Shown here: positions 56,887-58,468 of the stretch, piece by piece
How positions within the stretch are numbered: position 1 is the first letter of the stretch
How the letters are laid out: each line of letters starts with the position of its first letter
Source: Acidimicrobiia bacterium
GTDB lineage: Bacteria > Actinomycetota > Acidimicrobiia > Acidimicrobiales > Bin134
DNA length: 64,000 nucleotides
Assembly (NCBI GenBank): GCA_022826705.1
Contig: JAJDUJ010000007.1
Coordinates: 147,134 to 211,133, forward strand
Reading direction: 5' to 3'
Program-made: the position numbers and the translations under genes
The notes under the pieces: generated by a model
What the model was told of the DNA's origin: nothing
Databases searched by the model: none
Seen by the model: only the letters and a program-made list of their open reading frames with translations

Positions 56887-57882
56887 GTGAGTCCTCCATC
56901 TCTCTGGCCTGGCTACCGGACCAGGGGGTTTGCCGCTGCCTTGGCTATGGCGCTGGCATTGGGCCTGGTCGCCGCCGCCTGCGGGAGTTCCGAGACTTCG
57001 GAGACCGACAACGCCGCATCGACGGCCGCTCCCACCGCGGCATCCACCCTCGCGGAGTCAGACCAGCAAACGGCACAGGATCCGACACCTACCGAGGCCG
57101 CGTCCGCCGAGGCGACGACAGAGCCGAGTACCGACCAGGACAGCATGGGAGCTTCTCCCGGCTTGCCCGAGCCAGACGAGGCTCCTGCTCCCGATCCGAC
57201 CGAAGAGGCAGCCAGCAGCACTCCCACGGAGCCAGCAGCTGCCCCCGAGTCGACTTCAGCTCCCGAGCCGGCAGCTACCGCCGCCCCAGCGGCCACGTCG
57301 GCCCCGCAGGCGACTCCGGCACCGACGTCTGCTCCCGCCCCCACGCCCACGGAGCCACCACCCACGCCAGCAGCGACACCTCGGCCGACTCCGCCACCCA
57401 CTCCACCTCCCACGCCAGAACCGACTCCCGACCCGACACCGGAGCCCACGCCAGTGCCCGATTCAGATCTGCCTTCGGTGCAGATGGTGAACGTGGCCAC
57501 CGGAGCCACCGTAAACCTGGCCAGCTTCGCCCCGTCGGATCGGCCCATCGTGCTCTGGTTCTGGGCGCCCCATTGACCCACCTGCCGCCGGGAAGCCCCC
57601 GGCCTCGAGCAGTTGGCTCGAGACAACACCGATAAGTTCACCATGATCGGGGTGGGCGCCCGAGACAGTCTGAGTCAGGCCGAGAACTTCGTTCGAGTCA
57701 CTGGATCAGGAAATTCGCTCCTAATGCTCTGGGATTCGTCCGGCGCCTCCTGGAACGGGCTGGGAATAACCAGCCAGCACCGGATAATCGTCCTCAACCG
57801 GTTCGGGCAGGAAATCGACAAGCGGGCCAACCCGTCGCACAGCTGGATCCTGGACAAGGTGGCCAGCATTGGAACGGCCTGA
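56887..57882 (+). CDS. Predicted selenoprotein: secreted DsbE/MPT53-like thioredoxin-fold lipoprotein with UxxC active site (copy 1)
   Basis: Reading UGA 57574-57576 as selenocysteine gives a 331-residue protein. It has a lipoprotein signal with Cys32, a Pro/Thr/Ala linker to about residue 195, and then a thioredoxin fold: ATVNLASFAPSDRPIVLWFWAPH, Sec230-Pro-Thr-Cys233, RREAP, IGVGARDSL and LMLWDSSGASW. The frame stays open to TGA 57880-57882 and the post-UGA sequence is clearly homologous to copy 2 and to mycobacterial DsbE/MPT53, which has WCPFC at this site. The usual cis-Pro is replaced by His (TSQHRIIVL). Termination at the UGA would yield a useless stub. The GTG start abuts GGGAGG, which is unusually close. 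Sec insertion is inferred; the Sec machinery is not in this window. Confidence 0.82.
57577..57622 (+). promoter_or_regulatory. Candidate bacterial SECIS element after UGA of copy 1
   Basis: Two stacked hairpins follow the UGA. Hairpin A is GCCGGG/CCCGGC (57587-57592/57598-57603). Hairpin B is CTCGAGC/GCTCGAG (57604-57610/57616-57622) with loop AGTTG. The loop of B begins 35 bases after the UGA and has G among its first two bases, fitting what I recall of bacterial SECIS rules. Only hairpin B is intact in both copies. Confidence 0.55.
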
Positions 57883-57895
57883 AATGGAGAAAACC

Positions 57896-58468
57896 ATGAG
57901 ATCGAAAATCAAGGTTCTCGCCATTGCCGCCTGCTTGGCCGTTACCGCAGTCGCTTGCGGAGACAGCACCGACGGCCCTGAGACTGCCCCACCTGAGGCG
58001 CCGCCCGCTCAGGCGCCCGCACCCGAACCGACCGCCGAGACCACCGCCCCAGCTCCGGCATCTGATCTGCCCTCGGTTGACCTGGTGGACGTGGGCACCG
58101 GGGCCACCGTAAACCTGGCCAGCTTCGCCCCCGCGGACCAGCCCCTCGTTCTTTGGTTCTGGGCGCCCCATTGAACCATCTGCCGCCGGGAAGCCCCCAG
58201 CGTCGAGCAGTTCGCTCGAAACAACTCTGACAAACTCACAGTGATCGGAGTCGGAACCCAAGACAGCCTCGGTTTGGCTGAGAGCTTCGTGCAATCCACC
58301 GGAACCACCTTCACCATGCTCTGGGATCCGACATTTGAGTCTTGGCGTCAACTGGGCATCTCCGGCCAGCCCGCCGGGATGCTGCTGGACAGCAACGGCA
58401 CAATCCTGACCTCGTGGCGGGGCGGGATACCCCAGAGCCGGGTGCTTGAGGCAGTCGACGCCGCGTAA
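57896..58468 (+). CDS. Predicted selenoprotein: secreted DsbE/MPT53-like thioredoxin-fold lipoprotein with UxxC active site (copy 2)
   Basis: Reading UGA 58172-58174 as selenocysteine gives a 190-residue protein. The signal peptide ends at Cys21, a 35-residue Pro/Ala linker follows, then VLWFWAPH, Sec93-Thr-Ile-Cys96, RREAPSVEQF, VIGVGTQDSLG, MLWDPTFESW and the cis-Pro loop GISGQPAGMLL. The frame ends at TAA. Copy 2 starts 13 bases after copy 1 with GGAGA before ATG 57896; ATG 57884 is an alternative. It retains the complete thioredoxin set except Cys to Sec and the neighbouring Trp to His. It likely reduces or isomerises disulfides outside the membrane. Confidence 0.85.
58175..58219 (+). promoter_or_regulatory. 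Candidate bacterial SECIS element after UGA of copy 2
   Basis: Hairpin A (58185-58190/58196-58201) carries one C-A mismatch. Hairpin B, TCGAGC/GCTCGA (58203-58208/58214-58219) with loop AGTTC, is perfect. The distance from UGA to the loop of B is identical to that in copy 1. Confidence 0.55.

What the first reader, a model, noticed from the sequence alone, without database searches (positions are those of the whole stretch)
56887..58468. Two tandem predicted selenoproteins: DsbE/MPT53-like lipoproteins with UxxC instead of CxxC
Seen: both genes are open from a lipoprotein signal peptide to WFWAPH, then have an in-frame UGA at exactly the same codon (57574-57576 and 58172-58174), and stay open in the same frame for about 100 residues that complete a thioredoxin fold. 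The codon replaced is the nucleophilic Cys of CxxC, giving U-P-T-C and U-T-I-C; the resolving Cys is kept. Known: selenocysteine typically replaces redox Cys, and mycobacterial DsbE/MPT53 has LWFWTPWCPFC at this position. Inferred: the UGAs are recoded, making two secreted selenoproteins, probably not described in Acidimicrobiia.
Basis: partly seen in the sequence, partly recalled or inferred. Interest (0 to 1): 0.93.

Follow-up and report, generated by a model that had tools for sequence, protein, structure and literature searches.

The report
Tandem selenocysteine redox lipoprotein genes
Two neighbouring genes of an uncultured actinobacterium each carry a UGA stop codon exactly where relatives have the catalytic cysteine, followed by a conserved, covarying RNA hairpin, so they are predicted to make membrane-anchored selenocysteine redox proteins, part of a family that recurs across its class.

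Summary
Both genes have an in-frame UGA at the catalytic-Cys codon (57574, 58172) and, read through, complete a DsbF/MPT53-like thioredoxin fold. The genome carries tRNA-Sec, SelA, SelB and a UGA-containing SelD, plus other UGA genes at known Sec sites. In the class, 56 sampled genomes keep UGA in this family: 49 have tRNA-Sec, the other 7 SelA. Cys versions (TGC/TGT) sit at the same codon, mostly in genomes lacking the machinery. Two hairpins follow the UGA. The second (UCGAGC-AGUUN-GCUCGA, loop 34 nt after UGA) fits the published bSECIS model, covaries, freezes synonymous codons and couples the residue at +15 (Arg/Gln) to base pairing: 111 of 111 UGA members of the WFWAPH set, 0 of 17 Cys rows. 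UGA-type SelD shows the same layout. UxxC thioredoxin-like selenoproteins are a known kind, and selA/selB are already reported as frequent in sponge-symbiont bins; I found no description of this subfamily or its RNA. Sec insertion, substrate and redox direction are untested. An open frame after UGA alone would be no evidence in this window.

The parts
56887..57882 (+). Gene 1: predicted Sec lipoprotein, 331 aa read through (lipobox-like LVAAAC, about 160-residue Pro/Thr/Ala-rich linker, thioredoxin-like domain from about residue 193); UxxC = U-P-T-C; His at the usual cis-Pro place (SQH)
57574..57576 (+). In-frame UGA of gene 1 at the catalytic Cys codon
57587..57603 (+). Hairpin H1 after the UGA of gene 1 (sequence varies in the family; structure favoured over synonymous shuffles)
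57604..57622 (+). Hairpin H2 of gene 1, the predicted bSECIS core: CUCGAGC-AGUUG-GCUCGAG; loop starts 34 nt after UGA, G at loop position 2
57896..58468 (+). Gene 2: predicted Sec lipoprotein, 190 aa read through (lipobox-like TAVAC); UxxC = U-T-I-C; cis-Pro kept (GQP); 13 nt after gene 1
58172..58174 (+). In-frame UGA of gene 2 at the catalytic Cys codon
58184..58202 (+). Hairpin H1 after the UGA of gene 2
58203..58219 (+). Hairpin H2 of gene 2, the predicted bSECIS core: UCGAGC-AGUUC-GCUCGA

Best explanation
Two adjacent genes carry an in-frame UGA where homologues have the catalytic cysteine, followed by a conserved covarying RNA hairpin, and this UGA is very likely decoded as selenocysteine to give two predicted membrane-anchored DsbF/MPT53-like thiol-disulfide oxidoreductases. 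Shown: the UGAs, the Sec pathway genes, the Cys/UGA pairing in relatives and the RNA element's conservation; the fold is a confident prediction. Inferred: SelB with Sec-tRNA binds the second hairpin (H2, loop RGUUN), whose loop starts 34 nt after the UGA, and inserts Sec; the first hairpin (H1) fills the gap and probably helps to position or stall the ribosome. Inferred: the product is exported and anchored as a lipoprotein, its selenolate attacks disulfides or other oxidised sulfur outside the membrane, the mixed selenenylsulfide is resolved by the Cys three residues on (U-P-T-C, U-T-I-C), and the protein is re-reduced by a CcdA/DsbD-type membrane carrier, one of which is encoded beside the ordinary Cys-TlpA of this genome.
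Against: No peptide or selenium data exist here. G087 and G185 have tRNA-Sec and SelA but a Cys form of this domain, so UGA is not obligatory. tRNA-Sec was not found in 7 of the 56 UGA genomes, G252 of the same genus among them; there only SelA supports the pathway. H2 alone (17 nt) reaches the published -7.5 kcal/mol in only 38 of 64, though the 50 nt after UGA do in 64 of 64. Rfam has no match at the site. In the second set 9 of 35 UGA rows, other TlpA-like subtypes, lack H2 at this register. No conserved operon partner shows a substrate or electron donor (crude gene finding). 61 of 112 UGA members also end in UGA, so the cell must tell the two uses apart.
Confidence: 0.9

Rival explanations
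1. The UGAs are ordinary stops: the genes are pseudogenes or make short truncated lipoproteins of 229 and 92 aa, as databases now annotate some relatives.
For: Database proteins P0011-P0013 end at WFWAPH (106-108 aa); P0012 is named hypothetical protein. Open frames after UGA are not rare in this window (15 of 100).
Against: Same UGA codon in over 100 loci with 94-103 codons kept open behind it in 110 of 112, conserved thioredoxin fold behind the UGA, constrained synonymous codons and covarying hairpin, UGA tracking Sec machinery.
Confidence: 0.02
2. UGA is read through as another amino acid (a UGA-decoding tRNA or general read-through) rather than as Sec.
For: None specific; leaky UGA read-through happens in many bacteria (recalled).
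Against: tRNA-Sec with anticodon tca and SelA, SelB, SelD are present; UGA also serves as the final stop in 61 of 112 UGA members; the position is the redox Cys; the hairpin fits the bSECIS model.
Confidence: 0.02
3. Same Sec proteins, but they work as oxidants of secreted proteins (as recalled for MPT53/DsbE of mycobacteria) or as peroxide- or metal-handling proteins rather than as reductases; copy 1, with His at the cis-Pro place, may bind a metal through Sec, Cys and His.
For: Closest solved relatives are DsbF and MPT53; the cis-Pro place holds P in 51, S in 14, H in 3 of 68 rows; the tandem copies differ there.
Against: CcmG and ResA match the fold about as well; a DsbD_TM carrier is encoded; no direct evidence either way.
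Confidence: 0.35
4. The UGA is a selenium-responsive switch: at low selenium a short lipoprotein is the main product and has its own role.
For: Recoding in E. coli is about 30-40% efficient and needs selenium (PMC4513850, abstract start and passages), so truncated product is expected.
Against: The short form ends at the active site and so lacks most of the thioredoxin domain; what remains is largely linker.
Confidence: 0.05

Closest known systems
DsbF (3ios) and MPT53 (1lu4), actinobacterial DsbE-like secreted oxidoreductases
   Different: Catalytic Cys is a UGA codon with a bSECIS-like element; His replaces Trp before it; long Pro-rich linker in copy 1; 30-32% identity
Published UxxC selenoprotein families: Prx-like thiol:disulfide oxidoreductase (PF00578), Redoxin family protein (PF08534), thiol-disulfide isomerase-like protein (cd02966)
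   Same: Same Pfam domains over cut-off and same UxxC motif (Table 1 passages of PMC13188914)
   Different: Their representative accessions could not be fetched, so closeness is open; term searches of the selenoproteome papers gave no Acidimicrobi- and no Actinobacteri-; PMC1794560 does report selenoproteins of other Actinobacteria
NCBIfam WAxxUGC_long (NF041054), ResA-like selenoprotein
   Same: TlpA/ResA-like domain with Sec
   Different: UGC motif; 24.3 bits against a cut-off of 300 for gene 2
Canonical bSECIS (PMC13188914 Fig. 2 legend; E. coli fdhF as textbook case, recalled)
   Same: 5-nt apical loop, 6-bp stem, G then U at loop positions 2-3, loop 34 nt after UGA
   Different: A second, separate hairpin H1 lies between the UGA and the recognised hairpin, also in UGA-type SelD genes of the same order
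CcmG/DsbE, ResA, TlpA
   Different: Cys instead of Sec; TIGR00385 dsbE cut-off not reached (40.5 of 123.15)
selA/selB enrichment in sponge-symbiont bins (PMC5649159)
   Same: Reports SelA and SelB together in most symbiont bins of various phyla; its bin134 (Sva0996) is one of the tandem-pair genomes here
   Different: The passage names no selenoprotein and no RNA element; its supplementary table was not seen

Membership tests
Bacterial selenoprotein | In-frame UGA where homologues have a redox Cys | tested here: met
   113 TGA, 3 TGC, 1 TGT at the motif, a set enriched for TGA by the scan pattern; further Cys forms
Bacterial selenoprotein | selA, selB, selC, selD in the same genome | tested here: met
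Bacterial selenoprotein | Sec shown in the protein | not testable with these tools
   needs 75Se labelling or mass spectrometry
bSECIS (model in PMC13188914) | 4-16 bp upper stem with 3-9 nt apical loop | tested here: met
   6 bp and 5 nt; 96.4% of cells paired in 64 sequences
bSECIS (model in PMC13188914) | G in the first two loop positions | tested here: met
   loop position 2 is G in 64 of 64 (invariant G39)
bSECIS (model in PMC13188914) | 16-37 nt from UGA to the apical loop | tested here: met
   34 nt in the ungapped alignment; 32 nt in SelD of this genome
bSECIS (model in PMC13188914) | MFE at or below -7.5 kcal/mol | tested here: met
   64 of 64 over the 50 nt after UGA, but 38 of 64 for the 17-nt H2 alone; window sites -24.6 and -17.5 over 50 nt
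DsbE family (NCBIfam TIGR00385) | Score over curated cut-off 123.15 | tested here: not met
   40.5 bits for the gene 2 domain, 28.2 for gene 1
MPT53/DsbF-like fold | Thioredoxin fold with CxxC/UxxC at the start of the active-site helix | tested here: met
MPT53/DsbF-like fold | cis-Pro opposite the active site | tested here: inconclusive
   Pro in gene 2, His in gene 1; Pro in 51 of 68 rows
Published UxxC families PF00578 / PF08534 / cd02966 | Domain plus UxxC | tested here: met
   PF00578, PF08534, PF13905 over cut-off with U-P-T-C and U-T-I-C
Published UxxC families PF00578 / PF08534 / cd02966 | Closeness to the listed representative sequences | not tested
   no tool fetches those accessions
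Lipoprotein | Signal peptide with lipobox Cys | tested here: inconclusive
   crude pattern in 59 of 64 upstream frames; no signal-peptide predictor available

The most novel reading that the evidence does not exclude
Actinomycetota use a distinct two-hairpin SECIS in which the SelB-binding hairpin sits one hairpin away from the UGA, and this RNA dictates the protein: residues V-E-Q-F-A-R/Q behind the selenocysteine are kept for base pairing rather than for catalysis, so that a residue can flip (Arg to Gln) in step with a silent codon change. In this clade selenocysteine is a standing tool of extracytoplasmic thiol chemistry.
Probability: 0.5. Interest if true: 0.82.

Novelty: new variant of a known kind. 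Interest (0 to 1): 0.73.

Why it matters
In this class tRNA-Sec is found in 246 of 395 sampled genomes, and a selenoprotein subfamily runs through it that, in the database entries I looked at, is cut off at the UGA. A 2026 review says that aerobic bacteria rarely keep selenoproteins (PMC13188914, passage), whereas a 2016 survey found many aerobic Sec users (PMC5029168, passage); this clade, thought to be largely aerobic (recalled), is a direct test case. The 64 divergent elements give an unusually strong covariation case for one bacterial SECIS, and a clean example of an mRNA structure shaping the amino acids next to an enzyme's active site. The read-through sequences allow re-annotation at once.

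Tried and rejected
Open frame behind the UGA as evidence by itself: rejected, since 15 of 100 TGA-ended ORFs in the window (the two genes included) do the same. TGA inside a match as a proxy for Sec: corrected, since in G342 and G095 the motif codon is TGC and the counted TGA lies elsewhere. Rfam over the site: no match. RNAalifold consensus: only H2 is kept in register; H1 slips between registers, so it was tested by synonymous shuffles instead. R1 model over the own genome: only the two window sites are convincing (E 2.8e-16, 1.2e-14; next 0.097), so this strict model does not find the other UGA genes. Neighbour analysis with a crude gene finder on the named loci: largest cluster of 336 neighbour proteins is a GcvT-like gene on the other strand (21 proteins, 13 loci), no redox partner seen (GCV_T by Pfam for the window copy only). 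Tree of 71 rows: Cys rows fall in several places (4 changes, at least 2 forced), so a single origin of U is not shown; many forks are unresolved. First SelD script printed nothing and was redone. G043: the motif could not be read (TGA and TAG in the match). Membership of the published families could not be settled by sequence. NCBIfam scores against cut-off are shown only for gene 1 and the gene 2 domain; for the other 67 rows of A3 the call gives counts and best E-values.

Papers: PMC13188914, PMC9312934, PMC1088965, PMC1794560, PMC2398784, PMC5029168, PMC4513850, PMC5330540, PMC5649159, PMC13083753 and PMC7760498 seen as matched passages (some also as abstract start); PMC12013277 as abstract start, its passage search matched nothing; others only as search listings. 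That this subfamily is not in print rests in an open-access library without supplements, so it is a weak negative; PMC12013261, a likely place, is not held.

Full report
Observation. The two genes are as described. Gene 1 runs from GTG 56887 to TGA 57882 and gene 2 from ATG 57896 to TAA 58468, 13 nt apart; each has one extra in-frame TGA, at 57574 and 58172. Both TGAs follow VLWFWAPH and precede xxCRREAP. Pfam Redoxin, AhpC-TSA and Thioredoxin_8 score over cut-off when the TGA is read as a residue. An open frame behind the TGA would not by itself be evidence here: 15 of 100 TGA-ended ORFs of at least 90 aa in this window, these two included, stay open for 97 or more codons.

Sec machinery. The window is C30:147134-211133 of a 3.45-Mb draft of 31 contigs, 95.4% complete. 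On C27 lie tRNA-Sec (68.6 bits, gathering 47; tRNA-SeC with anticodon tca by ARAGORN) and, 15 kb on, selA and selB overlapping by 4 bases. selD lies on C10 and has its own in-frame TGA at SHGAG-U-AGK. The same genome has a formate dehydrogenase-like gene with RT-U-HAPSV, two peroxiredoxins with U at the presumed peroxidatic position (KASTKG-U, KALTPG-U) and a protein with NW-U-GC; the roles of these residues are recalled. With the two window genes and selD that makes seven UGA genes at Sec-like sites, found by searching only a few families.

Relatives. In 395 genomes of the class, 350 match the domain at 1e-6. Of the first 91 rows of that match list (E up to 3.3e-20), 83 hold a TGA. All five other genus members in the sample have it, and two of them (G320, G252) also have two copies side by side. 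The motif codon was read in fetched stretches: 41 places in the window and the first 40 stretches, 37 TGA and 4 Cys, with later batches. Together with the pattern-scan loci, 117 distinct places gave 113 TGA, 3 TGC and 1 TGT; this count is enriched for TGA because the scan pattern contains it. An exact pattern scan (WFWAPH-U-xxC) over genome contigs (84,980 species) gave 114 stretches; of the 80 listed, 71 are titled Acidimicrobi- or Ilumatobacter, one is Sva0996 marine group and 8 are unresolved actinobacteria or bacteria; the other 34 were not shown. Of 112 UGA members with a stop in view, 110 have 94-103 codons behind the UGA. A phylum-wide sample gave 35 of 396 genomes at 1e-20, with UGA members also outside the class: one close member (G552, WFYAPH-U) and others of a WFWAPW-U type.

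Machinery and UGA go together. tRNA-Sec is in 246 of 395 class genomes. Of 58 genomes flagged with TGA in this family, two (G342, G095) proved to be TGC at the motif. Of the other 56, 49 have tRNA-Sec and the remaining 7 have SelA; the motif codon was read as TGA in 55 and could not be resolved in one, G043. Cys-only genomes are nine after this correction: seven have neither tRNA-Sec nor SelA found, two (G087, G185) have both. Sec use in such bacteria is not wholly unreported: a study of sponge-symbiont bins notes SelA and SelB together in most bins of various phyla, and its bin134 (Sva0996, Acidimicrobiia) is the record MPNQ01 that carries the tandem pair here (passages of PMC5649159; L149).

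RNA element. In 64 sequences left after removing near-copies, the region behind the UGA aligns without gaps. H2, columns 32-37 with 43-48, is paired in 96.4% of cells, with 25 cells changed on both sides against 4.8 in shuffles; slid structures pair 19-47%. Two of the six pairs never vary and so say nothing. The loop is A/G-G-U-U-N, with G at position 2 in 64 of 64, starting 34 nt after the UGA. This meets the loop, stem, G and spacing rules of the published model; the energy rule is met by the 50 nt after the UGA in 64 of 64, and by the 17-nt hairpin alone in 38 of 64. Synonymous codon choice is constrained where the stem lies: Glu +11 is always GAG and Gln +12 always CAG, and GCT and CGA are strongly preferred at +14 and +15. 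Energies against synonymous shuffles give z of -2.09 for H1 and -2.89 for H2, and -0.40 to 0.20 in four control windows. H2 with at least 5 of 6 pairs is in 111 of 111 UGA members of the WFWAPH set (2 of 113 dropped for lack of flanks) and in 26 of 35 UGA rows of a later set, the nine misses being other TlpA-like subtypes; it is in 0 of 17 Cys rows, one locus counted twice. The residue at +15 is Arg in 46 sequences, all with C as third base of codon +10, and Gln in 18, of which 14 have U there: the protein follows the RNA. Shared ancestry makes the p value of 6e-11 too small; the Gln carriers are however divergent.

SelD as control. The 30 best-scoring SelD loci of the order gave 27 UGA and 3 Cys forms. 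The UGA forms show the same layout: z -1.57 for the H1 stretch and -3.41 for the H2 stretch, with codon usage taken from the lipoprotein family. In this genome the SelD H2 loop is GGUCG at 32 nt. So a two-hairpin layout is shared by two unrelated genes of the clade.

Protein. AlphaFold2 with 68 sequences (4 of them Cys forms) gives pLDDT 97.3 and pTM 0.91 for the gene 2 domain. The best structural and sequence matches are DsbF (3ios) and MPT53 (1lu4), with CcmG and ResA close behind. No NCBIfam model reaches its cut-off for gene 1 or the gene 2 domain; among selenoprotein models WAxxUGC_long gives 24.3 of 300 bits. One protein-database search found 28 proteins; of the nine read, three end in WFWAPH at the UGA, one of them named hypothetical protein, and others are Cys forms such as WFWAPHCTICRREAPE. 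The cis-Pro place is Pro in gene 2 and in 51 of 68 rows, His in gene 1 and its two genus orthologues, Ser in 14.

Mechanism. Committed reading: SelB bound to H2 inserts Sec; the lipoproteins act outside the membrane as fast thiol-disulfide oxidoreductases, Sec attacking and Cys +3 resolving, most likely as reductants fed by a CcdA/DsbD-type carrier, since a DsbD_TM protein is encoded beside the Cys-TlpA of this genome. The decoding part I hold at about 0.97, the fold and location at about 0.9, the reductive direction at about 0.55.

Novelty. UxxC thioredoxin-fold selenoproteins are an established kind. New here, as far as my searches reach, are this lipoprotein subfamily, the extent of Sec use in Acidimicrobiia, and a two-hairpin SECIS with strong covariation. 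The literature search covers open-access papers only, without supplements. At this check I lowered interest slightly, because selA/selB in sponge-symbiont bins were already in print.

Noticed in passing
G000:C30:110331-111602 (locus L319): Formate dehydrogenase-like gene with in-frame TGA in RT-U-HAPSV, upstream of the window on the same contig.
   Followed up: partly
L311, L312, L316 (G000 C30:272130, C3:150427, C23:89048): AhpC/TSA-family genes with in-frame TGA: two Bcp-like peroxiredoxins (KASTKG-U, KALTPG-U) and an NW-U-GC protein. Their RNA elements were folded but not analysed.
   Followed up: partly
window 57454-57882 and L025, L026: Copy 1 of the tandem has His at the cis-Pro place (SQH); 14 other family rows have Ser (NS). 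Sec, Cys and His together could form a metal site.
   Followed up: no
L293-L303, L306: WFWAPW- or WLWAPW-U-xxC relatives outside the class carry the H2 hairpin with other stem sequences (GCGCAGGUUGCGC, GCACAGGUGGUGC): a phylum-level Sec subfamily.
   Followed up: partly
L262-L264, L266-L268, L270, L305, L309: Further TlpA-like genes with UGA lacking H2 at this register; some seem to have a hairpin nearer the UGA. L309 holds a TGC and a TGA copy side by side.
   Followed up: no
L133:6006 and 6227: Two WFWAPH-U motifs only 221 nt apart, not a multiple of three: probably a partial or frameshifted duplicate.
   Followed up: no
L031, L097 (other families of the order): Tandem pairs elsewhere branch apart from the window's pair in the tree, so duplication seems to have happened more than once (weakly resolved).
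   Followed up: partly
L045, L091 (G087) and L255 (G185): Genomes with tRNA-Sec and SelA but Cys forms of this domain, candidates for Sec-to-Cys replacement.
   Followed up: no
G252 and six more genomes: UGA members and SelA present but tRNA-Sec not found at 1e-9; assembly gap, filter loss or divergent tRNA not resolved.
   Followed up: partly
L149 (MPNQ01000016.1, Sva0996 bin134): Sponge-symbiont bin with the tandem pair; the source paper reports selA and selB as frequent in symbiont bins and rarer in their references, a lead on why Sec is kept.
   Followed up: partly
L017:13939-15495 (G000:C27, minus strand): 518-aa ORF joining a 2Fe-2S domain to a short piece of a molybdopterin-binding domain, between tRNA-Sec and selA; looks like a shrunken Mo-hydroxylase.
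   Followed up: no
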